Below the pieces are notes generated by a model. The model was given only the letters and a program-made list of their open reading frames with translations, ran no database searches and was not told the origin of the DNA. The translations under genes and the position numbers were made by a program. From the NCBI GenBank assembly GCA_017427265.1, contig JAFRTG010000009.1, positions 1-64,000 of the forward strand: 64,000 nt of DNA, read 5' to 3'. Source of the stretch: Oscillospiraceae bacterium (lineage in GTDB: Bacteria; Bacillota; Clostridia; Oscillospirales; Ruminococcaceae). Shown in pieces: positions 1-63,817 of this stretch (the stretch's first letter is position 1; each line of letters opens with the position of its first letter).

Positions 1-140
1 CTTGTTTTGCGTTTTTTACGTCTCGCCTTGACGTTGTATTTACTCAGTTTCCTCAGTAAATACGGAATCTTCAAGGGTTCCTCTTTGGTTGCATTGTTCA
101 ATTTTCAAGATGCTGTTCGCTGTTTCTCAACAGCTTATTT
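1..140 (-). other. Probable rRNA operon leader (left-edge)
   Basis: Read on the minus strand, this stretch follows two strong tandem promoters, has no supportable ORF, and contains a segment of the type CTTGAAAATTGAACAATG that is typical of rRNA leaders and spacers in Clostridia. It also holds a GCTGTTGAGAAACAGC-type hairpin just after the proximal start site. I infer a 16S rRNA operon begins just left of the window. The rRNA itself is not visible, so this is inference from promoter architecture and sequence style. Confidence 0.55.
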
Positions 141-169
141 ATTATAGCACATTTTCGATCGTTTGTCAA
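141..169 (-). promoter_or_regulatory. Proximal promoter P2, perfect consensus
   Basis: On the minus strand TTGACA is followed by a 17-nt spacer and TATAAT, an exact sigma-A consensus. It points off the left edge and lies about 100 bp downstream of a second strong promoter. Confidence 0.85.
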
Positions 170-245
170 GCCCTTTCGGAAACTTTTTTCAAATTCTTTT
201 CGATGTGCTTTCCTGTGCTCACCGCTCTCTCGCGGCGACTTGTAT

Positions 246-274
246 ATAATAACATATTTCCCGGAAAAAGTCAA
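246..274 (-). promoter_or_regulatory. Distal promoter P1 of tandem pair
   Basis: Minus-strand TTGACT, 17-nt spacer, TATTAT. Tandem promoters of near-consensus quality about 105 bp apart are characteristic of rRNA operons. Confidence 0.8.
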
Positions 275-375
275 GCGAAAAACGCCCTTTTTCTTTCTTT
301 TTCCGTTTTCAACAAAAGGAGTCCAAAATCACGGTCAACCGACGTTAAATATGTCACACCCTCCGGAACAAAATC

Positions 376-401
376 GCCCGGAGACATGAAAATCTCCGGG
401 C
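376..401 (-). terminator. Rho-independent terminator of mrp-prmA
   Basis: A perfect 9-bp stem (GCCCGGAGA with TCTCCGGGC, 8-nt loop) begins eight bases past the prmA stop. It is followed on the minus strand by a moderately T-rich run. It separates this operon from the rRNA-type promoters downstream. Confidence 0.75.
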
Positions 402-408
402 AATTTCC

Positions 409-1377
409 TCATTTTTTCATTAAAACTGCTGCCCAGCCCGCGCTCTGCTCAATCCGCTCCGTTTTCAGTCCAACGCCGTTCATTGCGTCAAGAACCTCAT
501 CCAAACGCTCGTCAATAATGCCGGAAAGCAGCAGCGATGCACCGTCCGCAAGATAATGCACAAACAAATTGCGCATCGCAATCAAAATATCTGCAACAAT
601 ATTCGCACAGACGACATCATATCGGGTTCCGAAATGCGCAGCCAGCGCTTCATCCTCCAGAATATTTCCGCATTCTGTATGATAGCGCTCTGCCGGCACA
701 TGATTCCGCTCCGCATTTTCCGCAGCAGCTTCGGCCGCATTCTGCTCAATGTCGATTGCATAGGCCTCATCCGCTCCAAGCAGCATGGCGCCGATAGACA
801 GAATACCGCTGCCGCAGCCGATGTCAAGCACCTTCGCACCCTGTTTCACGCATGTTTCAAGTAAGCCGAGGCAAAGTCTCGTCGTATCATGCTGACCGGT
901 TCCGAAGCTGGAGCCCGGATCAATCCGCAGCGCCGTGCGTCCCGCTGGAATCGGCTCGTCCACCCATGTCGGTGTAATCCACAGACGTTCGCCGACCGGC
1001 AGCGGACGAAAATACTGCTTCCAGTTATTCGCCCAGTCCTCCTCGCGTATGCCTTTCGATTCCAGTTTCAGCGTTCCGTAAAGTTCCGCATCCGCACTTT
1101 TGCGCAGCCGGTCAAGCAAGGAACGCACCTCTGTCATCTGCTCGGCGCCCTGTGCATTTTCCGGCACATAGACCGTGATGCGCGGCGCGCCCGATGTCAG
1201 CTGTTCCTGCAATCCCTCTTCGAGATAATCCCAATGGCCGACGCGGCCGGCCATCAGCTCATCAAAATCATCCGGATCATAGATCGAAAAGCCCTTGAAG
1301 CCCAGATCCGTCAGCATCGCACAAAGCAGATCAAGCCCCGGCTTTGCGGTTTCTATCGTTACTTCTGTCCAGTTCAC
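409..1377 (-). CDS. prmA: Ribosomal protein L11 methyltransferase PrmA
   Basis: The 322-residue protein matches PrmA, a cytoplasmic SAM-dependent enzyme that trimethylates ribosomal protein L11. The N-terminal substrate-recruiting part begins MNWTEVTIE. The C-terminal Rossmann methyltransferase domain shows PGSSFGTGQHDTTRLCL and the SAM-binding loop VLDIGCGSGILSI near residues 180-195, then a VVCANIVADIL segment corresponding to the family's catalytic N-P-P-like motif. Length is normal for the family. The start is GTG, overlapping the upstream mrp stop by 4 nt (GTGA), so the two genes are translationally coupled. Confidence 0.93.
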   Translation of the reverse strand: MNWTEVTIETAKPGLDLLCAMLTDLGFKGFSIYDPDDFDELMAGRVGHWDYLEEGLQEQLTSGAPRITVYVPENAQGAEQMTEVRSLLDRLRKSADAELYGTLKLESKGIREEDWANNWKQYFRPLPVGERLWITPTWVDEPIPAGRTALRIDPGSSFGTGQHDTTRLCLGLLETCVKQGAKVLDIGCGSGILSIGAMLLGADEAYAIDIEQNAAEAAAENAERNHVPAERYHTECGNILEDEALAAHFGTRYDVVCANIVADILIAMRNLFVHYLADGASLLLSGIIDERLDEVLDAMNGVGLKTERIEQSAGWAAVLMKK

Positions 1378-2213
1378 TGCTTTTCCCCTTCGCCGAGTGC
1401 GAGAATCGCATCCACAGCGGGGTCAAGCCAGTCGCCTTCAAACAGCTCAACCATACCCGCATCACAAGCTCCGGCCAGTTTCGGATTCATCGGAATCTTT
1501 CCGAGCACCGGCAAATTGTGCTTCAGCGCGATCTCGTCGATCTTGCTTTCGCCGAATACCTGAATATGCTTGCCGCAATCCGGACATACTGCATAGCTCA
1601 TGTTTTCGACCAGACCGAGAATCGGCACCTGCATGGTTTCCGCCATTTTGACTGCCTTTTCCACGATCATCGAGACAAGCTCCTGCGGCGTCGTGACAAT
1701 CAGGATGCCGTCCACCGGAATGCTCTGGAAAACAGTCAGCGGGACATCGCCGGTTCCGGGGGGCATATCGACAAACAGGAATTCATCGTCGCCCCAGATG
1801 ACATCCGTCCAGAACTGCTTGACCGCGCCGGCAATCACCGGGCCGCGCCAGATCACCGGATCAGACGGATTTTCCAGCAGCAGATTCACGCTCATGAGAT
1901 CTGTGCCGAGCTTGGAACGAACCGGATAGATACCCTGATCGTCTGCCTCTGCGCGTGCCGTAATACCGAACATTTTCGGAACAGAAGGTCCTGTGATATC
2001 TGCATCGAGCACGCCGACCGTGTGACCGGTACGCTGAACAGACACTGCCGTCAGCGCCGTGACAAGCGACTTGCCGACACCGCCCTTTCCGCTGACAACG
2101 GCAATCACCTTGCCGATTTTGCTGAGTTCATGCGGTTTTTCATGCAGATCCTGCGGCTCGCGGCTGGAACATGCCGCGCTGCAGCTGGAACAATCATGCG
2201 TACATTCGCTCAT
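1374..2213 (-). CDS. mrp: Mrp/NBP35-family P-loop ATPase (Fe-S carrier)
   Basis: This 279-residue protein is a Mrp/ApbC-type ATPase that carries Fe-S clusters to client proteins in the cytosol. The deviant Walker A VSGKGGVGKSLVTAL lies near residue 40, DADITGPSVPKMFG follows, and DMPPGTGDVPLTVFQS is the switch region. A CPDC pair (residues ~215-218) is the conserved C-terminal cluster-binding CXXC. The N-terminus has an extra cysteine cluster (CTHDCSSCSAACSS), resembling the Nbp35-type N-terminal motif. It is the first gene of the mrp-prmA operon, with a good promoter and an AGAAAGGAAG ribosome binding site. Confidence 0.92.
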   Translation of the reverse strand: MSECTHDCSSCSAACSSREPQDLHEKPHELSKIGKVIAVVSGKGGVGKSLVTALTAVSVQRTGHTVGVLDADITGPSVPKMFGITARAEADDQGIYPVRSKLGTDLMSVNLLLENPSDPVIWRGPVIAGAVKQFWTDVIWGDDEFLFVDMPPGTGDVPLTVFQSIPVDGILIVTTPQELVSMIVEKAVKMAETMQVPILGLVENMSYAVCPDCGKHIQVFGESKIDEIALKHNLPVLGKIPMNPKLAGACDAGMVELFEGDWLDPAVDAILALGEGEKQ

Positions 2214-2251
2214 TTCAATCTTCCTTTCTTCAGATAAAGCATTGCCTATTC

Positions 2252-2280
2252 AGTATACCACAAGCCGCCGATTTTGTCAA
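2252..2280 (-). promoter_or_regulatory. Promoter of mrp-prmA
   Basis: Minus-strand TTGACA, 17-nt spacer, TATACT, about 40 bp upstream of the mrp start. Confidence 0.8.
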
Positions 2281-2294
2281 CGGCTGAACGCAAA

Positions 2295-2322
2295 ACAGGA
2301 CGGCACGCATGTACCGTCCTGT
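2295..2322 (-). terminator. Terminator of first cohesin-like gene
   Basis: A 9-bp stem ACAGGACGG/CCGTCCTGT is followed on the minus strand by TTTTGCG. The same stem sequence recurs in the terminator of the third cohesin-like gene, so the terminators were probably copied with the genes. Confidence 0.8.
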
Positions 2323-2424
2323 CGTATGGATCAGATTTTTGTCAACTGCCGGAAGCCAGAGCAATCCTTCGTTGTGCACGCAGCTTCCGTACTGCCAAAA
2401 CCGGCCGGCAGTTCTGATGTATTC

Positions 2425-3264
2425 TTATCTGCGTCCCGGCTTACCCGGTGCAGCCGGATGATGACCCGGACGAACCGGCTCATGATGTCCGCCGGGCTTT
2501 CCCGGGAAATTGTGGTGCTTGGCATGGCCGTGATTGCAGCAGCAGCTGCACTGACAGCCGCCCTGGTGGGGATCCTCAGCGGGATCCGGATCTTCGATCG
2601 GGTCAGGATCTTCGATCGGATCGGGGTTGTCGATCGGGTCAGGATTGTCGATCGGATCCGGCTCATCAATGGGATCCGGCTCAGTCTCAGAGCCGACAAC
2701 CTCAATGTAGCCATCCACGACGTTGTACTCAATTTCCGTATCATTTTCGTCAATGATACTTTCAACATCCCATGTCACGAGGAACTTATCGCCCGCCTGG
2801 GCGTCGGACGGAATAACAAAATCTACTGTGATGTATCTGCCGTTGTCGGTAATTACGTCCATTCCGGCTGCGCCGCAGCCGATCCGGCACTGCTTGAGGT
2901 TTTCCTTGACGATGCAGATATCGTTTCCGGCCTCGCCCTTTTCATAGGCAAGCGTATCGCCGTAGCGAACCGGTGAGATTCTTTCGTCATACTTGATCGC
3001 AGCGCCGAGAGAAACATAGCCTGGATTGTTTGCCAGCTCGACCGAATAGCGGACAACATAACCGGACGTTGCAGCCTGAACATCTGCTTCGTCAACAGTC
3101 ATTCTGGTCGCCACGAAATTGATAACATCATCCCGCAGCTCCGGATAGTTGTCCGGATTCACTTCTCGAACTGTCTCAGCTGCACTTGCATATAAGCCAA
3201 CGGCTGCAAGTGAAACCGCGCTGCAAAGAATTGCAGCGGCCTTGATTAAGATGGATCTGTGCAT
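2425..3264 (-). CDS. Secreted cohesin-like protein with Cys/His-rich tail
   Basis: The ATG is preceded by AGAAAGGA and gives 279 residues. A Sec signal peptide (MHRSILIKAAAILCSAV..., cleavage near ASA-AE) is followed by a ~150-residue domain closely paralogous to its two neighbours. It contains VRYSVELANNPGYVSLGAAI and a KYD turn, the strand pattern of cohesins, the receptors for dockerins. Then come about six DPI[D/E]xP hexapeptides and an unusual tail rich in Cys, His, Gly and Pro (GGCQCSCCCNHGHAKHH, then HHEP/GHHP/PGK). Unlike its neighbours it has no TGD-type anchor or terminal hydrophobic segment. The tail suggests metal binding or disulphide cross-linking, but that is inference. Cohesin assignment is by pattern only. 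Confidence 0.7.
   Translation of the reverse strand: MHRSILIKAAAILCSAVSLAAVGLYASAAETVREVNPDNYPELRDDVINFVATRMTVDEADVQAATSGYVVRYSVELANNPGYVSLGAAIKYDERISPVRYGDTLAYEKGEAGNDICIVKENLKQCRIGCGAAGMDVITDNGRYITVDFVIPSDAQAGDKFLVTWDVESIIDENDTEIEYNVVDGYIEVVGSETEPDPIDEPDPIDNPDPIDNPDPIEDPDPIEDPDPAEDPHQGGCQCSCCCNHGHAKHHNFPGKPGGHHEPVRPGHHPAAPGKPGRR
2571..2682 (-). repeat. 18-bp tandem repeats coding DPI[D/E]xP
   Basis: Roughly six units of 18 bp with the core GATCGGGTCAGGATC (plus strand) encode the acidic Asp-Pro linker of the cohesin-like protein. The units differ by a few bases, so this is an in-frame linker array that can change length by slippage or recombination. Confidence 0.8.
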
Positions 3265-3334: not shown

Positions 3335-3633
3335 CGCTTTTTTAACAAAAATACAACATTGTCCATACGGCTTTGAACATTTTCAATACATTTTTTAATC
3401 ATATTTTTATAGGCGGTGCTTACACTTTTTTGATTTTGTTATAAAACAAGAGGAAAGCGAGGACGATATTCTGCACAACGCTCTGTTAAATAAGCACATA
3501 ATATTACTATATGTCAGAAAAAAACCGGTCTTTCTCCCGGTTGATCGCCGCAATATCCGACCAAAAATCCGGCGCTCCGAACAGCGCATTTCATCCCCGT
3601 TATTCCGGTTTCGCGGCTTCATTCAGGCATAAA
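3335..3633. other. Intergenic stretch without a gene
   Basis: AT-rich to the left (3335-3480), no supportable ORF. The only structure is an orphan terminator-like hairpin at 3523-3542 on the minus strand. Confidence 0.5.
3523..3542 (-). terminator. Orphan terminator-like hairpin
   Basis: Minus strand AACCGG, 8-nt loop, CCGGTT followed by a run of Ts. It lies about 90 bp past the terminator of the second cohesin-like gene. It could be a backup terminator or the remains of a lost gene. Confidence 0.5.
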
Positions 3634-36331: not shown

Positions 36332-36352
36332 GCACTCCCCCGTTCCGCAAAC

Positions 36353-36468
36353 ATGTTTCAGGGCGAGGTGAAAATCCTCACCGGCGGTTAAAGTCCGCGA
36401 GCCGCTTTCGGGCGGCTGAACCGGTGTGATTCCGGTACCGACGGTTACAGTCCGGATGGAAGAAACAG
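36353..36468 (+). promoter_or_regulatory. FMN riboswitch (RFN element)
   Basis: All conserved blocks are present in order: AGGGCGAGGTGAAAATCC, ACCGGCGGTTAAAGTCCGCG, AGCCG...CGGCTGAACCGGTG, GATTCCGGTACCGACGGT, ACAGTCCGGATGGAAGAAAC. P1 is formed by TGTTTC and GAAACA. A terminator stem follows, so FMN binding should switch off ribU transcription. Confidence 0.97.
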
Positions 36469-36520
36469 ATTGCACAACACAGCTGCGGCCTTCCGCCGCG
36501 GATTTCTGCTGTTCAATCCG

Positions 36521-51505: not shown

Positions 51506-51895
51506 ATGGAACCCAAAAAACTGCCGGATGCCGAATTTGAAATCATGAAGGCAATCTGGCAAATGCAGGAGCCGGTCACATCCGGCATGGTCACGGAACA
51601 GCTGCGGCTGACGGTTCCCCCAAGAGAATGGAAGCCGCAGACAATCCTGACAATGCTCACCCGTCTGGAGCAGAAAGGCTTTCTGCGATCGGAAAAGCAC
51701 GGCAGAGAACGTGCATACTACGTGCTGATTCCGCAGGCAGATTATCTGCAAATCGAAGCAAGCAGCTTCCGGCAGCGGTTTTCCGGCGGCCGCTTCACAG
51801 GACTTGTCAAGGCGCTCTGCGATACCGATGATCTGACCGCAGCAGACATCGAGGATCTGCAGCGCTGGCTCGAAGAAAGGAGCAAGCAGTCATGA
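51506..51895 (+). CDS. BlaI/MecI-family repressor
   Basis: 129 residues. The winged-helix DNA-binding domain has LPDAEFEIMKAIW, the recognition helix in PQTILTMLTRLEQKGFLR and a C-terminal dimerisation helix. Family repressors are cleaved on signal from the BlaR1-type sensor encoded next. The two operators upstream imply autoregulation. AAAGGAGG lies 8 nt before the ATG. Confidence 0.92.
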   Translation: MEPKKLPDAEFEIMKAIWQMQEPVTSGMVTEQLRLTVPPREWKPQTILTMLTRLEQKGFLRSEKHGRERAYYVLIPQADYLQIEASSFRQRFSGGRFTGLVKALCDTDDLTAADIEDLQRWLEERSKQS

Positions 51896-53103
51896 TGATG
51901 AAAATTGTGCAGCATCTGTATCACGCAATCCTGAATGAAAATTTCCTGTCATATGTGATTCAGAGCATTATAATCTGCTCGCTGACGATGAGTTTCATCG
52001 CGGCATTCGTGCTCCTGATCTCCCGCCATATGAAGAACCGGCAGTCCGCCGCAGGACGCTGCCTGCTCTGGTGGGTAATCGGTTTTGGCTTCCTGATTCC
52101 GTGCAAGCCGCATCCGGCGGGCTCTATCACCGTCATCAGCGCAGACGGACTCCATGATTCACCTACTTTGGCGGATATGATCGCATACCGTCTGCACAGC
52201 CGCTGCGATCTGAGCAAAGAATTCTTTGTTCTGCTGTTCTGCGTCTGGTTGATCGGTGCCGTCGTATACGGTACTGTGACACTGAACCGTCAGGAGCAGT
52301 TCAGACGGGACATCAAACGGCTGCACAGACCCGCAGATATGCACACGCAGGCGCTCGCAGACCTGCTCTGCGATACGCTCAGCATCAGACGGCACATCCC
52401 GGTTTATACGGTTCCGGTGATTGAAACGCCCATGCTGAGCGGATTGCTGCGCCCCTGCATTCTGCTGCCGGAGCAGGAATATGACAGCGAAGAGCTGCGG
52501 CTGATCCTGAAGCATGAGCTCTGCCATTACTGCCGCGACGATCTGCTCTGCAAGCTGCTGTGGATCGGCTGCCGGACAGTTCACTGGTTCAATCCGTTTC
52601 TGCCGCTGCTGATGCAGCAGATGGAGCAGGACTGCGAGCTCGCCTGCGATGAAGCCGTCATGGAGAACGAACCGTCTGATTCCGCGAACATTTACTGCAA
52701 GGCGATTCTGCACACGGCCATGCGCCGCACCGCCGGCAAAAGAACAGATACAGTGCTTGCAACGGGCTTTTCATGCAGCAAGGAGATTCTGCGTTCCCGT
52801 CTGCAGGCAATCCTTTCCGGTGTCCGAAAGCGCTGCTGCCCGGCTGTTGCGGCTGTCGCGCTGATCCTCACGCTCCTGACAGGCAGCCTTCTCGCATATG
52901 AGGTATTCGATACCATGCCGTCGCTTGCGCCGCACAACACGTTCATATCGACCGCCGCTGCGTCCGTACCGGTTCCGGAAAACCCTGCCGAACCGCAAAC
53001 GACGCTGCCGCCTCCTGAATATCTCACGGAGCAGAATATCCCCGCAGTTGAAGAGATGCCGGATGCGGTCCATACGCAGCCGCAGATCATTCCGCTCCCG
53101 TAA
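51892..53103 (+). CDS. BlaR1/MecR1-like M56 zinc metalloprotease sensor
   Basis: 403 residues with four membrane helices and a cytoplasmic M56 peptidase domain. LKHELCHYCRDDLLCKLLWI has the HEXXH zinc site, and ELACDEAVMENEPSDSANIY carries the third ligand Glu. The extracellular C-terminal part is short (~80 residues, Pro/Thr-rich) and lacks the penicillin-binding domain of true BlaR1, so the signal is unknown. It overlaps blaI by 4 nt. No beta-lactamase is adjacent. Confidence 0.88.
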   Translation: MMMKIVQHLYHAILNENFLSYVIQSIIICSLTMSFIAAFVLLISRHMKNRQSAAGRCLLWWVIGFGFLIPCKPHPAGSITVISADGLHDSPTLADMIAYRLHSRCDLSKEFFVLLFCVWLIGAVVYGTVTLNRQEQFRRDIKRLHRPADMHTQALADLLCDTLSIRRHIPVYTVPVIETPMLSGLLRPCILLPEQEYDSEELRLILKHELCHYCRDDLLCKLLWIGCRTVHWFNPFLPLLMQQMEQDCELACDEAVMENEPSDSANIYCKAILHTAMRRTAGKRTDTVLATGFSCSKEILRSRLQAILSGVRKRCCPAVAAVALILTLLTGSLLAYEVFDTMPSLAPHNTFISTAAASVPVPENPAEPQTTLPPPEYLTEQNIPAVEEMPDAVHTQPQIIPLP

Positions 53104-54053: not shown

Positions 54054-54089
54054 AAAAAGGCTGAGCTGCCGGAAGCGTTCAGCCTTTTT
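54054..54089 (+). terminator. Terminator of XRE regulator
   Basis: An 11-bp stem AAAAAGGCTGA with its complement around a 14-nt loop, ending in CTTTTTG. Confidence 0.88.
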
Positions 54090-54104
54090 GATTGTATACA
54101 GAAA

Positions 54105-54136
54105 ACAGGCCGCAAACTGTTCCGTTTACGACCTGT
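54105..54136 (-). terminator. Former terminator of the target tRNA
   Basis: On the minus strand a 13-bp stem ACAGGTCGTAAAC with GTTTGCGGCCTGT (two G-U pairs) is followed by TTTTCTG. It lies 10 bp past the tRNA 3' fragment, as expected if it belonged to the tRNA gene before integration. Confidence 0.75.
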
Positions 54137-54146
54137 CTCATAAAAA

Positions 54147-54170
54147 TGGTCGAGGTGACAGGACTTGAAC
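54147..54170 (-). repeat. tRNA 3' fragment: attachment site of element
   Basis: Read on the minus strand the 24 bp are the T-loop (TTCAAGT), 3' T-stem, 3' acceptor strand CACCTCG, A73 and CCA of a tRNA. G72 and A73 fit tRNA-Pro. No 5' half follows to the right; element DNA with an integrase does. This is the att duplicate left when an element inserts into a tRNA 3' end. The intact tRNA should lie at the far end, beyond the window. Confidence 0.8.
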
Positions 54171-54380: not shown

Positions 54381-55010
54381 ATGCCGTTAAAACAACCTGA
54401 AAACGATCCCACATTCGATGTTCTTGCATACATGCGTTCGCTTTCCCCTATTCCGGACGGAAAGTACGAGTGTGCAACAGTTGCCGACTGGACTGTCTGC
54501 TGGTTACTCCATTATTGTTCCGGAATTAAAGAGTCCACAAAAATGGAGTACGAAAAGATCGTTCAGCAGCATATCAATCGCGTTCTCGGAAAAGTTCTTC
54601 TGACGGAATTATCACACGAGGATGTTCAGCTGTTTATCAACAGCCTGAATATGGGAATCGGTATCGACAATAAGTTAAGCCCGAAAAGCATTAAAAACAT
54701 TCATGGGACACTCCATATTTGCCTGAAAGTCGCTGTGGATTTCGGATATATCAATGCGAATCCAGCGGACAAGATCATTCTGCCGAAGAAAACCACTCCG
54801 GAGATTGTTCACCTTGAACCGGAGATTCTGCATGACTTCTTCGGTGCAATCAAGAATCATCCTAAGCGGCTTCTGTTTATTGTTTCTATTTTTACCGGAA
54901 TGCGCGAAGGTGAGATCATCGCTTTCACATGGGACTGCGTTCGGTTCGATACCGGCGATATTTACCTCTATCGCCAGCTTTCTCAAAATGTATATGGTTC
55001 GTTTTTCTGT
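54381..55010 (+). pseudogene. Tyrosine integrase, 5' part only
   Basis: The ATG follows AAAAGGAG. About 210 residues match the N-terminal and first catalytic part of a phage-type tyrosine recombinase: a core-binding domain (VADWTVCWLLHYCSGIKEST, INRVLGKVLLTELSHEDVQL), then the catalytic-domain start with the box I arginine TGMREGEIIAFTWDC. Reading is then lost in a group II intron, and box II (HxxR) and the nucleophile Tyr never appear, even past the intron. In a full element it would catalyse integration at the tRNA. As sequenced it is non-functional. The exact 3' end depends on the intron boundary, which I could not fix. Confidence 0.82.
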
Positions 55011-57382
55011 ATACATCTCATCGGTTGAAATACCATTGAGGACTTTGAAGAACTGTAATTCAAATCAAAGTCAGATTCTCTCGGTGTACGGCAGCAGCCT
55101 AAGGGCTTCACAAATAGGATAGAGATTTAGGAACGTTTGAGAGCCTGTTATCGGAGTTTTACAGAACGCTGAAGGTAACAGGAAGTCAGCCGTCCCATAG
55201 TAGTCTGAGGTTGGGAAAGCCAACCACAAAGAGCTGAAATGCTCTGCGGCGAAGGGGACGAGTCAGATTAATGATAAATTTCACGAATTGAGAACAAATA
55301 ACTCCCTGAAATATTGGGTGACGAACTATGGGGTGATACCTTATACATCTAAACGTCATGTTCTCGGACGAAAGCGACCTAAAAAGATGTCAGGATTATC
55401 TTTACCAAAAGAGCCTTGACAATGTCACTTTCACAGGATTGATTGAAGCAATGTGTAACGAGGTTACGATTGTAACAGCAATTCATGACATCAAATCCAA
55501 TCACGGCAGTAAAACGCCGGGAGTGGATGGTAGAAACATCAACCAATATCTGCAAATGGGCAAAGATGAATTAATTGCACTGATTCAGTCCAGATTTCAC
55601 AGTTATAAACCCAAACCTGCAAGACGCGAATATATCGCCAAAGCAAACGGAAAATTGCGTCCGTTAGGCATACCGACTATGCTTGACAGGATCATACAGC
55701 AATGTATGAAAATCATACTGGAACCGATATGCGAAGCAAAGTTTTACCCGCACAGCTACGGTTTCAGACCGTACAGGGCGCAGAAACATGCAATCAGAGA
55801 CATCGTAAATGTTATCAATGCAACAGGCATCCGGAAAGATAAGGCGGTATGGGCGATTGAGGGCGACATTAAAGGATACTTTGATACGATCAATCACAGG
55901 ATTCTGATGCGGAAGCTCTGGAAAATAGGAATCCATGATAAACGGGTTCTGAAAATCATAAGCCAGATGCTGAAAGCGGGATATATTGAACACGGATTGT
56001 ATCATATGACTACAACAGGAACCCCGCAGGGCGGCATATTATCGCCGCTGCTTGCAAATGTATATCTGAATGATTTTGACTGGTATGTAGGCAGAAAATA
56101 TCTGGAACCGCATAGAAAATGCCTGCGTAAAAGTAATGACACAAGAAGACTGAAAGCACACGGCGCAACACCAAAGTATAATTTCAGATATGCAGATGAT
56201 TGGGTAATACTGACGACATCAAAGGAAGAAGCCGAAAGGCTGAAACGTGAATTGACCAAATACTTCAAATACCAGCTAAAGCTTGAATTGTCGCAGGAAA
56301 AAACATATGTCACAGACCTGCGCGACAAAGGCATCCGATTTCTCGGATTTGTAGTGAAAGCGGAGCGGAAACGGAAAACACCGAATCCGAAATCATGGAC
56401 TGACAATCTTGTCGGAAAACCGTACCCAGACCTTGAAAGGCTAAAGCGGAAAACAGATAAAATTAAGGAAGCGATCAGGACAATCCAAACGTATGAAGCA
56501 CCTACTTCCAGAGCGGCAAAGATACAGGAAATCAATTCCATGATAATGGGAATTGCACAGTATTTACAGCCGTCTATCTGTTCGCACGCTTATAACATCA
56601 TAGACAGGAAAGTCAATAATACTGCATTTGCGGTATGGAAAAGAATGTACCCGCACAGCTACAATCAAATGCAGATTCCGCTGCAAAACCTTTGTAATCT
56701 CCCGCACAGACATCAGGGATATACAAGTACGACATTTGCGATCAGGGTTGAGGGGTTCTGGTTCGGTCTGACCTACGCATTCATCACGCACAGCAAGTAT
56801 GAGACCAAGCCTTTCGATCAGAAAACAACACCCTATACCGAAGACGGCAGAAAACGATATTTACAGCAATGTAAGAATAACAAGCGCCTACCATGCAACA
56901 GACCTTCAATTAACAATGCAATGACGCTTGCTTTTACGCCTTATGTAAAAGGGAAATTCTGGAAGCAGAATTTCGAGTATTACATGAATCGGGAGTATGC
57001 TTTTAATCGGGACAAAGGCAAATGTAAATGCTGTGGGAAATATTTGAGCGGAGATGCAGACGGACATTGTCATCACGTTGACAGAAAATTGCCGCTGGAC
57101 AGAATCAATAAAGTGCAGAATCTGGCATGGGTCTGTGTTGAATGTCATCATATGATTCATAACAGCCCGATTTCCAATGTTGATGTTAAGACAGAACGAA
57201 AAATCATGAAATATCGTGCAAAACTCAAAAAGTGAAATTTATCGCAGGCTGTATATCGTGAGAGTACAGCTTTGTTGAGAGAAAAGTAAGTTAATCTGAT
57301 GGAACGCTGTGTGCGGTGAAAGCTGCATGCACAGTGTGAGGTGGGGGAAAACCCGGAGATTGTCTCAAAGGGTTACCTATCA
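55000..57382 (+). mobile_element. Group II intron with complete RT and domain V
   Basis: About 2.4 kb. The 5' ~350 nt are structured RNA without ORF (segments such as GGAAGTCAGCCGTCCCATAG are typical of domain I). The RT gene follows, then domain V (ACGCTGTGTGCGG-TGAAAG-CTGCATGCACAGTGT). The tail GGGTTACCTATCAC is the usual domain VI/3' end. The 3' splice site is close to 57382; the 5' end is uncertain between about 54980 and 55060 because no clear GTGCG is seen. It is inserted in the same orientation as the interrupted genes. Confidence 0.85.
55358..57235 (+). CDS. Group II intron reverse transcriptase/maturase (LtrA-like)
   Basis: 625 residues, complete. RT motifs: KTPGVDG, RPLGIPTMLDRIIQQCMKII, SYGFRPYR, WAIEGDIKGYFDTINH, TGTPQGGILSPLLANVYLND and the catalytic YADDW. 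A maturase X domain follows (residues ~380-500), then a C-terminal HNH endonuclease with CKCCGKYL, HCHHVDRKLPLDR and CVECHHMIH. It splices the intron and copies it into new DNA sites. All catalytic residues are present, so the intron may still move. Confidence 0.95.
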   Translation: MFSDESDLKRCQDYLYQKSLDNVTFTGLIEAMCNEVTIVTAIHDIKSNHGSKTPGVDGRNINQYLQMGKDELIALIQSRFHSYKPKPARREYIAKANGKLRPLGIPTMLDRIIQQCMKIILEPICEAKFYPHSYGFRPYRAQKHAIRDIVNVINATGIRKDKAVWAIEGDIKGYFDTINHRILMRKLWKIGIHDKRVLKIISQMLKAGYIEHGLYHMTTTGTPQGGILSPLLANVYLNDFDWYVGRKYLEPHRKCLRKSNDTRRLKAHGATPKYNFRYADDWVILTTSKEEAERLKRELTKYFKYQLKLELSQEKTYVTDLRDKGIRFLGFVVKAERKRKTPNPKSWTDNLVGKPYPDLERLKRKTDKIKEAIRTIQTYEAPTSRAAKIQEINSMIMGIAQYLQPSICSHAYNIIDRKVNNTAFAVWKRMYPHSYNQMQIPLQNLCNLPHRHQGYTSTTFAIRVEGFWFGLTYAFITHSKYETKPFDQKTTPYTEDGRKRYLQQCKNNKRLPCNRPSINNAMTLAFTPYVKGKFWKQNFEYYMNREYAFNRDKGKCKCCGKYLSGDADGHCHHVDRKLPLDRINKVQNLAWVCVECHHMIHNSPISNVDVKTERKIMKYRAKLKK

Positions 57383-57383
57383 C

Positions 57384-59395
57384 CATGCTTCGTCACGACA
57401 AAAATGACAAATGTTTCCGGTGTTACGACAAAGGCATCCGGCATTGCAGATGACATGCAGATGAAGTGCGATTACTTCAACGAGGAACTCGGTGACGGTC
57501 ATATTCTTTTTAGTACCGGCACACCGGTATCGAACTCGATGACAGAACTCTATGTCATGACAAGATACCTTCGCTCCGATCTGCTTGCGATGACCGGCAC
57601 AGAACGATTTGACGATTGGGCAGCGACATTCGGAAATGTGACGCAAAAGAACAAGATGAATCAAGCAGGACAGATGCAGCTCAAGACGAGTTTCAGCTCG
57701 TTCAAGAATATGCCGGAACTCATGCAGATGTATAAAGAGTTTGCCGATCTGGTATCTGCTGACAAACTTGCTGAAACGACCAAGCGTCCGGATCTGATTA
57801 CCGGTCAGCCGCAGATCATCGCTGTGGAAGCATCGCCGGAACAGAAAGCATATGTCGAACAGCTTGCTGAAAGGTCGCTTGCTTGCCAGAACGGTTTTGT
57901 CGATCCGCATACAGACAATCCGTTGAAGATCACACATGAAGCGAGATTGGTCGGACTCGGCAACCGTGCAATCGCAGCATTGTACCGGCAGAAGGACGGC
58001 GAAAAAGGCGAACTCCCTGACGGGTTTATCGAAGATCATGACAGCAAGATTGATGCCTGCCTTGAAAATGTCAAGAAGCTCTATGACAAGACCGCGCCTG
58101 AAAGCGGTGTCCAGATTATCTTCTCGGATATCGCTGTCAATGATGACAAGGGTAACTTCTCCGCTTATAAGTACATGCGTGATAAGCTGGTCGCTATGGG
58201 TATCCCGGAAAAGGAAATCGTCTTTGCTCCGAAGGCAAGTGCAAGAAACCGTGAAGATATTTTCCGTGACATTAACGAAGGAAGATACCGCGTGGTAATT
58301 GCTTCAACCAGTACGCTCGGCACCGGCGCGAACATTCAGAAGAAACTTTACGCGCTCCACAATTTCGACATTCCGTGGAAGCCAAGCGACTTTGAACAAA
58401 GACAAGGAAGAATCCTGCGGCAAGGCAACAGCTATGATGCAGTTGAGATTTTCAACTACGTTACAAAAGGAACACTTGACAGCTTCCTCTATCAGATCGT
58501 GACAGACAAGGCACGTTATATCGCGCAGCTCTGGAACGATGAATGCCCGGCTCGTATCATGGAAGACTGTGACGAAACTGTACTTACTTACGGTCACTTC
58601 CAAGCAGTCGCACAGGATAATCCCGATCTGCTGCATCATCTGGAATTGCAGAATAAGGTTGATGAGCTGAAACTCCTGCGCAGCGAATATCGCAAAGAAA
58701 CTTCTACGCTTCAGCGCAGAGTGGCGCAGATTCCGGATTTGCTTGAACAGACAAAGCAGAGAATCGAAGCAACGAAAAAGGATATTGACAGCGTTTCTGC
58801 AATGCGTGACAAGCAGACCGGAAAGATCAGCGAACTGTCCGTCCGGAAAAATGCCGGTCACGGAGAGGTTATACGCGACCACGGCGAAATCAATAAATAC
58901 CTGCTTTCCAAGATTCAGAGCAAGGCAAAGGCTCCGTTCGATGAACAGCCCGGTTTCACGATTGGGAACTTTACTGTTACAGTTCAGAGCAGTCACAGGT
59001 ATGCCGGAGAATTTGAATTTGTCATCAAGGGCGAATGGGACAAGGTGTATTATGTGGATGCTGCCAATGACGAAAAAGCTGATAACTGCCGCCGCATCTC
59101 CAATTTCTTCGATACCGGTTTGGAGAAAGAGTTGGCTAGAGCAGAGCAGAAAATCGAAGACCTTAACATGGAACAGAAGCAATCGCAGGAGCGCATCGAC
59201 AAGCCGTTCCCGGCACAGGACGAGCTGGATGAAGCAGAACAGGAACTCGCAGATCTGGACATTAAGCTGACGCAGAACGGACTTTTGACAGATGGCGCAG
59301 AATATGCAAACGGCGAGGAAGGCAACGACCAGACTTTCATTCCCGATAATGACGAAGACGAGGAAGATACCTATTTCGCTGACCATTCATTATAA
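57384..59395 (+). pseudogene. SNF2-type helicase of mobile element, C-terminal part only
   Basis: The 3' exon of the intron reads ~670 residues of the second helicase lobe of the very large methylase-helicase proteins common on clostridial integrative elements. Examples: HILFSTGTPVSNSMTELYVM, VFAPKASARNREDIF, IASTSTLGTGANIQKKLYAL and the Arg-finger motif FEQRQGRILRQGNSYDAVEI. A C-terminal coiled coil follows. The N-terminal lobe and methylase part are absent; the upstream exon is an integrase. It cannot therefore be expressed as a normal protein, even after splicing. Confidence 0.85.
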
Positions 59396-60819: not shown

Positions 60820-61070
60820 GGTTTGGGATTATCCCAATCTGCGGAGCAGACCGGAAGTTCCGTATTCATGATTTCTGATATAAAATCCGAGAAATCTGAA
60901 ATGGGTACGGAACTTCCAAAGCCGTCAAGGTCGCAGACTTTGCACATAGCTGGGTGTATACCCGGCGGTCTGTTTTGTATATCGCGTGAAACAGCGACGT
61001 ACAAAACAGAAAATGTGTTACCTCTCTCTTTCCAAAGTGTACGAAGTACGCTTGGAATAGAGAGAAAACG
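60820..61070. other. Candidate oriT with nested inverted repeats
   Basis: A 12-bp perfect inverted repeat GGAAGTTCCGTA (60853-60864 and 60906-60917) encloses a second one, GATTTC/GAAATC. Next come a GGGTGTATACCC palindrome (60951-60962) and an imperfect repeat at 61022-61064. No long ORF crosses it with a proper start. Position directly upstream of the relaxase genes fits an origin of transfer. Confidence 0.5.
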
Positions 61071-61113
61071 AACAAAACCGACTGCCAAACTGAAAAAAGA
61101 AAGAGGAACGACT

Positions 61114-61962
61114 ATGCAGAAATTCAGCGTTTCATTCTCACTCGGCAATGGTGCAGAGATTCATGGCGGAGACACTGACCATTATTTCAATGTATATCTT
61201 GCCGAAAAAATCAAGAAAAACCAGCATGATCCTTGTATTGTGTTCATTATGAAGAACATAAAAGATACTTATCACCAGTTGTTTGATGAAGCACTTGAAA
61301 AATACAATTCCACGAAAAAACCATGTCGCAAAATTAAGGATTACTATGAGCATATCTCGTCCGGAAATCGTGAATCGCCGTTCTATGAAGCAATCGTTCA
61401 GTTTGGTGACAGTATCAATGCGCCTGTCGGCTCAGAGCGCGGAAAGATCGCAAAGCAGTTGTTGACAGAGTATATGAAAGGCTTTCAAGAAAGAAATCCT
61501 AATTTGCATGTATTTTACGCTGTGCTTCATATGGACGGGGCAAGCCCACGTTTAAGAATTGATTTCGTTCCATTCTATAGCAAAAATCATAAAAATGGAT
61601 TGGTAAAAGGTGTTTCGATGCGAGCTGCATTGGAGGAAATGGGATACATTTCAAAAGGATACAGAGAGAATCATCTATCACTTTGGGAACAGGCGGAGAG
61701 AAAAGTTATGAATCAGCTTCTCAAAGTGCATGGATATACCCGTGAGGACAAGCATGTGAAACACAAGCACATGAGTGTATATGAATACAAAGAAATGCTG
61801 CGCAGAGATGCTATGATGAAAAATGCGAGAGCGAAAATCTTTCAGGAAGGAGATCTGCAAGCGATTAAGGAATTGCAGATCAAGTTGGCATCAGCTGAAC
61901 AACAAGTTGAGCAGCAAGAAGCTGAAAGAAAAGAAAGGTGGAAAAAACATGGAACAGTTTAG
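61114..61962 (+). CDS. MobV-type relaxase, truncated copy with lost His
   Basis: 282 residues of the Pre/Mob family: N-terminal strand FSVSFSLGNGAEIHGGD, the motif II region (NRESPFYEAIVQFGDSINAP), then HMDGASPRLRIDFVPFY where active members have HLDEASPHLHIDFVPYY. Both metal-binding histidines of the PHLH segment are Arg (PRLR), so nicking is unlikely. It ends soon after the relaxase domain. Two stretches of 59 and 48 bp are identical to the next gene at the same 838-bp offset. It may be a decoy, dimer partner or decaying duplicate. Confidence 0.85.
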   Translation: MQKFSVSFSLGNGAEIHGGDTDHYFNVYLAEKIKKNQHDPCIVFIMKNIKDTYHQLFDEALEKYNSTKKPCRKIKDYYEHISSGNRESPFYEAIVQFGDSINAPVGSERGKIAKQLLTEYMKGFQERNPNLHVFYAVLHMDGASPRLRIDFVPFYSKNHKNGLVKGVSMRAALEEMGYISKGYRENHLSLWEQAERKVMNQLLKVHGYTREDKHVKHKHMSVYEYKEMLRRDAMMKNARAKIFQEGDLQAIKELQIKLASAEQQVEQQEAERKERWKKHGTV

Positions 61963-63817
61963 TATCAGTTTTGCTCTAGGGAAAGGTAGCGCACCTCATG
62001 GTGGAAATATTGAACACAACAATAGAGAGTTTCTCGCTAGCAACGTGAATGAGATTAAATCGCCATTGAATGTTGTTTTCACAAGAACAGATATTGAGGA
62101 TGCTTACCATCAACTGTTTGATGATGCACTTGAAAAATATAACGAAAAACAAAATAGACCATGCAGACGGATTCAGAATTACTATCAACACGTAGCGTCT
62201 GGAAATCGTGAATCGCCGTTCTATGAAGCAATCGTTCAGTTTGGTGACAGTATCAATGCTCCGGTTGGATCTGAACGCGGCAAAATTGCCAAAGATATGC
62301 TGATAGAATTTATGAAAGGCTTTCAAGAAAGAAATCCCAATTTACATGTCTTCAACGCTACACTCCATCTGGATGAAGCAAGTCCGCATCTTCATATCGA
62401 CTTTGTGCCTTATTATACAAAAGGACGAAAGAACGGATTAGAAAAGGGTGTGTCAATGAAAGCTGCATTAGAAGAAATGGGCTTCCGTGCGCAAGGAAAA
62501 ATGAAAAATCAATTAGTCCTTTGGGTTCAGTCAGAGAAAAAAGTAATGGATCAGATTCTTAATTCGCATGGATATACCCGTGAGGACAAGCATGTGAAAC
62601 ACAAGCACATGAGCGTAGCCGACTACAAGACAATGGTAAACAGTCAAAAGACGATGCAAAGAATCGCAGCAAGACTTGGACTGTCCGGAGAAGAACAGCG
62701 TTCACGGCAAGAGCTATATGCAAAACTGGCAGCATCCGAGAAGAAGGTTGAACAGTTGGAAGCTGAAAGAAAATCTCCTTACGCTTGTTTTTATTACTCA
62801 TCGCCGGACAAACAGATTTTCGTTCAGGACGTAATGCGGCAAGAGGGCATCCACTTCCGAGAAACAGACAACGGTTTTGAAGTGCAGGAATGCTTCGCCA
62901 GACGGATCAGGGAAATCGAGAAGACATATCAGGCTCCGGCGTCCACGATCCGCGACAGGCTTCGGGATGATATTGATAGTTTCCTCTATCAGTCAAAGTC
63001 ATTTGACGAGTTCATCCAGAAGATGAAAGCCGCAAACTACGAAGTCAAACAAGGAAAATATATTTCTGTCAAGCCGCCTTACGGTCAAAGGTTCACCCGA
63101 TTGAAGTCGCTTGGAGAACACTATGACGAGTTTTCGCTAAAAAAGCGAATGAAGATCAAGGCGCGTTTTGAAGCACGCCTTGATAAACGCATCAAAGAAC
63201 TGGAAGCTGAAAAGGCTACGAACCTTTGCGTTCTGCAAGAGGTTCGGCGGTATATTGTTGTAGTCGAAAAGGGCGATCTTCCAATCAGAAAGAAAGATAA
63301 AACGCAGCCATTCAGTTGGAGCAACGATCCGGAGATTGACAAGCTGCTTGCGTTAAACAACATGCTGAATCAAGGGATGACCGTAGAAACGATCCGTAAA
63401 AAGGCAGAAACGCTTGAAGCAACCGCACAGACAAAAGGTGCTGAACTGGAACAAGCTGAGAACGATCTGCGTCAGTATCTGGAGATGAAAGAGAAAATCG
63501 AAATCGTCTTTGAAGGCAAAGCATCCGATGCATTTTCGCTGGAACAAGCAAAAGCTGCCGTCCGGCAATATCCGGATATTAACGCATCAAACTATAGGAA
63601 TATTGATAAGGTTGTCGATCCGGCGAAGGTGAAAGTTCAGGAACTTGCAGAGGAACATCGAGCTATCCGTTCAGAATTGAAAACCGTTACAGAAGCATTA
63701 AGCGTTATCGAAAAAGCAACCAATCACACCTATGTCGATCATTTGCTTGCAGATCAGCGCCGCATTGCCGCGTCGGAAGTGCTTATGAATGGTATCTATT
63801 CAGGAGAGTCGTTATGA
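61949..63817 (+). CDS. MobV-type relaxase, full-length
   Basis: 622 residues from the ATG after AAAGGTGG, overlapping the first copy by 14 bp. The relaxase domain is intact: ALGKGSAPHGGNIEHNNREF, the NRESPFYEAIVQFGDSINAP segment and the metal site HLDEASPHLHIDFVPYY. A long C-terminal region (residues ~250-620) contains coiled coil (RAEEE/KAEA-type heptads). It would nick the oriT and pilot the strand during mobilisation. Its stop overlaps traX by 4 nt. Confidence 0.92.
   Translation: MEQFSISFALGKGSAPHGGNIEHNNREFLASNVNEIKSPLNVVFTRTDIEDAYHQLFDDALEKYNEKQNRPCRRIQNYYQHVASGNRESPFYEAIVQFGDSINAPVGSERGKIAKDMLIEFMKGFQERNPNLHVFNATLHLDEASPHLHIDFVPYYTKGRKNGLEKGVSMKAALEEMGFRAQGKMKNQLVLWVQSEKKVMDQILNSHGYTREDKHVKHKHMSVADYKTMVNSQKTMQRIAARLGLSGEEQRSRQELYAKLAASEKKVEQLEAERKSPYACFYYSSPDKQIFVQDVMRQEGIHFRETDNGFEVQECFARRIREIEKTYQAPASTIRDRLRDDIDSFLYQSKSFDEFIQKMKAANYEVKQGKYISVKPPYGQRFTRLKSLGEHYDEFSLKKRMKIKARFEARLDKRIKELEAEKATNLCVLQEVRRYIVVVEKGDLPIRKKDKTQPFSWSNDPEIDKLLALNNMLNQGMTVETIRKKAETLEATAQTKGAELEQAENDLRQYLEMKEKIEIVFEGKASDAFSLEQAKAAVRQYPDINASNYRNIDKVVDPAKVKVQELAEEHRAIRSELKTVTEALSVIEKATNHTYVDHLLADQRRIAASEVLMNGIYSGESL

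What the first reader, a model, noticed from the sequence alone, without database searches (positions are those of the whole stretch)
54381..59395. Group II intron whose two exons come from different genes
Upstream of the intron lies the 5' third of a tyrosine integrase (up to the box I Arg); downstream is only the C-terminal half of a SNF2-type methylase-helicase. A self-splicing intron normally interrupts one gene. The simplest explanation is two copies of the intron, one in each gene of the same element and in the same orientation, which recombined and deleted everything between them (rest of integrase, helicase N-lobe, other genes). The intron would then have acted as a portable homology for deletion and locked the element in place. 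An assembly join through a repeated intron is a real alternative.
Basis: partly seen in the sequence, partly recalled or inferred. Interest (0 to 1): 0.85.

Follow-up and report, generated by a model that had tools for sequence, protein, structure and literature searches.

The report
Integrase–intron junction is a deletion scar
A mobile DNA element in a gut bacterium appears to have lost a large stretch of DNA from the middle of its integrase gene to the middle of a self-splicing intron, which makes the intron look as if it sat between two unrelated genes; this is ordinary decay of a mobile element, with one clear cause and no exotic mechanism needed.

Summary
The integrase 5' part, the intron and the helicase C-terminal half are present in order, but the integrase is not the intron's upstream exon. 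A same-genus genome (G026) carries the same intron complete (2,768 nt) with the helicase N-lobe as 5' exon; another (G019) has the uninterrupted empty site. The window lacks the intron's first 368 nt, including the 5' splice site: integrase sequence is joined to intron nucleotide 369, 13 nt before EBS1. The held genome has one intron copy, and the lost intron 5' part is not elsewhere in it. Recombination between two intron copies is therefore not supported. Best account: one illegitimate deletion, about 38 kb judging by a diverged complete element on contig C29, inside an element inserted at tRNA-Pro. attL is in the window; the intact tRNA-Pro on contig C48 is probably attR, though the contigs are not joined. 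The remnant is CIME-like. Similar integrase-anchored truncations occur in three congeners (two share one event). The intron lineage sits in conjugation ATPase genes: of 35 relatives, 25 have both exons in the same helicase, and the 33 whose 5' side is held keep the intron 5' end. An assembly error is not fully excluded.

The parts
54147..54170 (-). attL core: 24-bp copy of the 3' end of tRNA-Pro(CGG)
   Evidence: Pattern with up to 3 mismatches occurs at 2 places in the own genome, here and at C48:6773-6796, both exact; the C48 copy is the end of an intact tRNA-Pro. A 22-bp core is shared, with 0-1 mismatches, by G002, G003, G016, G024 and G028 upstream of their integrase.
54381..54986 (+). 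5' part of tyrosine integrase gene (about 200 of 354 codons; core-binding domain and Arg box kept, rest of catalytic domain lost)
   Evidence: 77% protein identity to residues 1-202 of the full-length G003 integrase; Phage_int_SAM_3; G003 full length has Phage_integrase domain at 155-322. The reading frame runs on into the intron and stops at 55028.
54983..54986 (+). deletion junction; 4 bases that cannot be assigned to either side
   Evidence: integrase homology to four relatives ends at 54982, intron homology to G026 starts at 54987
54987..57386 (+). group II intron remnant, nucleotides 369-2768 of the complete G026 intron; 5' splice site and first 368 nt absent
   Evidence: 95.1% identity (2282 of 2400) to G026; 5' limit; 3' end from RF00029 and the empty site
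55000..55005 (+). EBS1 (CGTTTT), retained
   Evidence: pairs fully with IBS1 in 26 of 27 related introns with 13 different hexamers; next best position averages 0.81 against 0.99
55358..57235 (+). intron-encoded reverse transcriptase/maturase, 625 aa, intact frame
   Evidence: dN/dS about 0.084 against G026 (dN 0.019, dS 0.230)
57302..57386 (+). intron domains V and VI
   Evidence: RF00029, model 1-77 of 77
57387..59395 (+). 3' exon: C-terminal part of the methylase-helicase, starting just after the DEAH motif
   Evidence: Helicase_C; 54% identity over 627 aa to the C29 helicase, which has N6_Mtase, DEAD and Helicase_C domains in 4188 aa
59467..60492 (+). element gene: DUF3991/Toprim_2 protein
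   Evidence: same place after the helicase in C29
60823..63817 (+). two overlapping Mob_Pre relaxase-like genes (60823-61962 and 61823-63817)
   Evidence: the second is 76% identical to a G024/G016 gene and 48% to a C29 gene

Best explanation
An integrative element of conjugative type had inserted at tRNA-Pro with its integrase next to attL and its methylase-helicase far downstream on the same strand. A group II intron had homed into the helicase gene just after the DEAH motif. One illegitimate deletion then joined the integrase gene (about codon 200) to nucleotide 369 of the intron and removed everything between: about 38 kb by the C29 yardstick. What is left is a remnant with attL, a dead integrase fragment, a 5'-truncated intron that cannot splice in cis, an intact maturase frame, the helicase C-half and the mobilisation genes. 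Shown: order, truncation, the true 5' exon and empty site in relatives, EBS1, single copy, absence of the lost intron part. Inferred: that it was a single deletion, its size, its few-base or no homology, loss of splicing, and the identity of attR.
For: Complete intron with helicase N-lobe 5' exon in G026, 132..2899 of the reversed contig. Uninterrupted exon join in G019:C133, 96.6% over 292 nt, the 32-nt join identical. A second genome, G028:C41, has the same intron 5' end behind a helicase DEAH motif. In the window the integrase meets intron nt 369. The lost intron part has no match in the own genome apart from the window's retained part and a C29 helicase exon stretch; one maturase, one domain V. 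C29 has integrase, helicase, toprim and mob in the order that a deletion needs. 25 of 35 relatives have both exons in the same helicase, and one has both in VirD4. Integrase-anchored truncations also in G024/G016 (joined next to mob) and G002.
Against: No reads were seen, so a chimeric join in this 49-contig assembly is possible. No genome with the undeleted form of this very element was found: the C29 element is only 42% identical in its integrase. The own genome has one C-terminal integrase-like stretch (C44, 32% identity to residues 208-339); it is far too diverged to be the lost piece, but was not examined. The four bases at the junction cannot be assigned, so the amount of microhomology is unknown.
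Confidence: 0.85

Rival explanations
1. One reading: two intron copies, one in the integrase and one in the helicase, recombined and deleted the DNA between them.
For: Would explain two genes on either side of one intron; integrase and helicase are co-oriented in C29.
Against: No intron 5' end behind the integrase: the first 368 nt are missing. Junction bases do not match IBS1. One copy in the held genome. None of the 35 related introns was found in an integrase: 25 in helicases on both sides, 2 more in helicases on the one side held, 6 in VirD4 or VirB4-like genes, 2 not identified. A later second deletion that removed exactly the intron start could rescue the model, at the cost of an extra event.
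Confidence: 0.04
2. Assembly artefact: two loci falsely joined.
For: Draft assembly, 49 contigs; no reads available; G026 is a fragmented MAG with an N beside its intron 3' end.
Against: The junction lies inside unique sequence: the 3.4-kb query finds only itself and a C29 helicase stretch, so there is no second intron copy to collapse onto. The left side is tied to chromosome (M56 gene) and the right side to further element genes in the expected order.
Confidence: 0.07
3. Abortive retrohoming: the intron RNA inserted into the helicase, reverse transcription stopped at intron nucleotide 369, and the unfinished cDNA end was joined to the integrase gene, deleting the DNA between.
For: The break lies inside the intron; the maturase frame is intact and under purifying selection against G026; the intron is more alike (95.1%) than its 3' exon (70.3%), so it has moved.
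Against: All 33 of 35 related introns whose 5' side is held keep the intron 5' end, so 5' truncation is not usual for this lineage. G024/G016 and G002 show the same style of truncation without an intron at the joint.
Confidence: 0.04

Closest known systems
CIME (cis-mobilizable element: a decayed ICE that keeps attL and attR; PMC5704250, passages read)
   Same: attL core kept, integrase broken, large internal loss, full tRNA gene at the probable other end
   Different: mob and toprim genes remain in frame; attR lies on another contig and is inferred; no circularisation or transfer data
Mobile group II introns in conserved motifs of conjugation genes, e.g. Ll.LtrB / Ef.PcfG in relaxase genes (PMC5072309, passages read)
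   Same: intron much more alike than its exons, same conserved site in diverged genes of conjugative elements
   Different: target is the DEAH motif of a methylase-helicase (also VirB4/VirD4-like ATPases in relatives), not the relaxase; this copy is 5'-truncated
Fragmented bacterial group II introns (RmInt1-like remnants; PMC5894124, passages read)
   Same: a decayed, splicing-dead intron piece left in a bacterial genome
   Different: the passages describe loss of the 3' end with the maturase; here the 5' end is lost and the maturase frame is intact
Trans-splicing bipartite introns (Ll.LtrB split experimentally, including within domain I; PMC3410883, passages read)
   Same: the break lies in the 5' region, upstream of EBS1
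   Different: the other half is not in the held genome

Membership tests
Functional group II intron | 5' splice site with consensus intron start | tested here: not met
   GTGCGAAACG start of G026 and G028 is absent; window begins at nt 369
Functional group II intron | domain V/VI | tested here: met
   RF00029 over its cut-off
Functional group II intron | EBS1 matching the upstream exon end (IBS1) | tested here: not met
   EBS1 CGTTTT kept, but the bases before the junction are TCTCAA
Functional group II intron | maturase/reverse transcriptase | tested here: met
   TIGR04416 319.7 bits, cut-off 300
Functional group II intron | splicing in vivo | not testable with these tools
   needs RNA
Recombination product of two intron copies | complete intron between the two foreign exons | tested here: not met
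   368 nt missing at the 5' side
Recombination product of two intron copies | other copies in the genome | tested here: not met
   one maturase and one RF00029 match; a lost copy cannot be excluded
Bipartite trans-splicing intron | missing half elsewhere in the genome | tested here: not met
   the assembly is 99.34% complete, not closed
CIME | attL retained | tested here: met
CIME | attR retained | tested here: inconclusive
   intact tRNA-Pro on C48 and an empty M56-gene/tRNA-Pro site in G011 fit, but C5 and C48 are not joined, and sequence left of attL (54083-54170) also resembles the left flank of tRNA-Pro in C48 and G028
CIME | integration genes lost | tested here: met
   integrase cut at about residue 202 of 354
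CIME | transfer genes lost | tested here: inconclusive
   two Mob_Pre genes remain; I did not search C5 beyond 64 kb or C48 for secretion-system genes with profiles

The most novel reading that the evidence does not exclude
The intron itself caused the loss: during retrohoming into the helicase, cDNA synthesis stopped at intron nucleotide 369 and the free end was joined to the integrase gene, so that a group II intron immobilised its own carrier element in one step.
Probability: 0.05. Interest if true: 0.65.

Novelty: new member of a known kind. Interest (0 to 1): 0.3.

Why it matters
It shows how a mismatched-exon intron can arise without intron-intron recombination or trans-splicing: a plain deletion that ends inside the intron. 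It gives a clear test for such cases (look for the intron's own 5' end and for IBS1). It also shows that elements with this integrase repeatedly lose the integrase from its middle onward while keeping attL, and that one group II intron lineage keeps to ATPase genes of conjugative elements across Clostridia-like bacteria.

Tried and rejected
Rejected: two-intron recombination (missing 5' end, no IBS1, single copy); trans-splicing from a second locus; inversion or translocation (lost intron part not found elsewhere). Led nowhere: phage records, no match; plasmid records, only weak matches, best 6% of the query covered; viral contigs, no confirmed relative; a search for EBS2 gave no clear position (best mean 0.74); the direct search for a second att core in C5 found none other than a 5-mismatch tRNA-Leu end; no structure was predicted. 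The difference in truncation between this integrase group (3 events among 5 distinct insertions, G016 and G024 counted once) and the 40-43% identical group (0 of 4) is too small a sample to claim a trend. G003 keeps a full integrase but the rest of its element seemed shortened too; not followed up.

Rows left out of counts: the EBS1 test used 27 of the 35 loci; L122 and L129 are cut by contig starts, L124, L125, L130 and L138 lack an alignment from nucleotide 1 in one piece, L134 and L137 resemble L133 and L136. Of the 35 loci, L116 (downstream) and L122 (upstream) show only one exon, and L129 and L142 were not identified. VirB4 is supported by profiles for the upstream side of L135 and L136 and by a P-loop_TraG match for L133; L134 and L137 rest on resemblance; the downstream 77-aa piece of L136 hit no profile. 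L109 is the same contig as the G026 locus, so it is not independent of it.

Full report
What is there. On the + strand of the window lie an integrase 5' part (from 54381), an intron-encoded maturase (55358-57235), domain V/VI of a group II intron (57302-57386) and a helicase C-terminal part (to 59395), followed by a DUF3991/toprim gene and two Mob_Pre genes. The window is the first 64,000 of 86,881 bases of contig C5 in a 3.82-Mb assembly of 49 contigs, 99.34% complete. The nearest named record of the intron (L109, the same contig as G026:C3) is an uncultured Ruminococcus sp..

The true 5' exon. Of 61 genomes searched with 54381-57700, one other, G026, holds the intron, at 93% identity from 54987 on. 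There, upstream of that point, come 368 further nucleotides of intron starting GTGCGAAACG, and before them the helicase N-lobe ending at the DEAH motif. G019:C133 has the same helicase uninterrupted: 96.6% over the 292-nt exon join, and the 32 bases about the join are identical. The complete intron is thus 2,768 nt. G028:C41 shows the same intron start behind another helicase's DEAH motif before the contig ends.

The junction. Integrase homology to G003, G028, G016 and G024 stops at 54982; intron homology starts at 54987, which is intron nucleotide 369. Four bases between cannot be assigned, and the window's closest integrase relative, G002, is itself cut too early to help. EBS1 was located by pairing with the 5' exon ends of related introns: 26 of 27 pair fully at one position, with 13 different hexamers, mean 0.99 against 0.81 for the next position. 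In the window EBS1 is kept at 55000-55005 and asks for an exon ending AAAACG, as the G026 helicase exon does. The integrase side ends TCTCAA. So the integrase was not the intron's target.

Copies. The own genome has one match for the maturase and one for RF00029. The 660-base query with the G026 exon and intron start finds only the window's retained part and a short C29 helicase stretch. No other integrase copy in the own genome resembles the lost C-terminal part closely; the nearest are C29 (42%, full length) and weaker ones, among them a C-terminal-only stretch on C44 at 32%.

The order before the loss. C29 carries a diverged element with integrase (97351-98352, minus), and on the same strand a 4,188-aa methylase-helicase (N6_Mtase, DEAD, Helicase_C), a toprim gene and a mob gene. 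From the equivalent integrase codon to the helicase DEAH motif is about 38 kb. A single deletion in such an element gives the window's order.

The site. The 24 bp at 54147-54170 are an exact copy of the 3' end of tRNA-Pro(CGG), whose intact gene is on C48. In G011 a gene like the window's left neighbour (M56, 73% to 51740-52902) lies directly beside tRNA-Pro, so M56 gene-tRNA-Pro looks like the empty site and C48 like the far end. Against certainty: C5 and C48 are not joined, and the sequence just left of attL also resembles the left flank of tRNA-Pro on C48 (78%) and in G028 (76%), which could mean a tandem insertion.

Other truncations. In 30 genus genomes this integrase group (identity over 70%) occurs in six: full length in G003 and G028; residues 1-202 in G000, 1-26 in G002, 1-235 in G016 and G024. 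G016 and G024 have the same letters at the joint, next to a mob gene 76% identical to the window's second, so they count as one event. The right side of the G002 joint was judged by reading only.

The intron lineage. Of 35 loci in genome contigs, 25 have both flanks in the same helicase (upstream match ending at residue 3510 in 23 of 25, downstream starting at 3512 in 22 of 25); two show one flank only; one has both flanks in VirD4; five lie in VirB4-like genes with the support told in Tried and rejected; two are unidentified. The intron start is present in 33 of 35; the other two are cut by contig starts. Retained intron identity to G026 is 95.1%, 3' exon identity 70.3%, as expected of an intron that homes between diverged genes (compare PMC5072309). 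The maturase is under purifying selection against G026, dN/dS 0.084 for this one pair; this says little about the time after the deletion.

Verdict. A deletion scar in a decayed element, CIME-like in the sense of PMC5704250 (passages). Five literature searches were used for context; I make no claim about what is or is not in print.

Noticed in passing
60823-61962 and 61823-63817: Two Mob_Pre relaxase-like genes overlap head to tail, the first short; C29 shows one mob gene at this place.
   Followed up: partly
L131, L133, L135, L136 (genome contigs): Relatives of the intron sit in VirD4 and VirB4-like ATPase genes of conjugative elements, so the lineage is not confined to the helicase.
   Followed up: partly
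L131, L133, L136, L139 downstream of the maturase: The exon frame seems to resume some 50 nt beyond the usual intron end, which recalls introns with a 53-56-nt 3' extension (PMC3261151, seen in a search listing only).
   Followed up: no
L034 ~9838, L035 ~7180, L036 ~6840: Other integrase genes of the same group cut off in mid-gene behind the same att core in G024, G016 and G002.
   Followed up: partly
L110 6640-6790: Helicase frame behind the intron stops after about 48 aa, another decayed copy.
   Followed up: no
contig C5 82753-83259 and 86034-86540: Two ORFs of 168 aa with nearly the same start lie near the contig end; a repeat may be why the contig stops.
   Followed up: no
36350-36471: FMN riboswitch (RF00050, 114 bits).
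   Followed up: no
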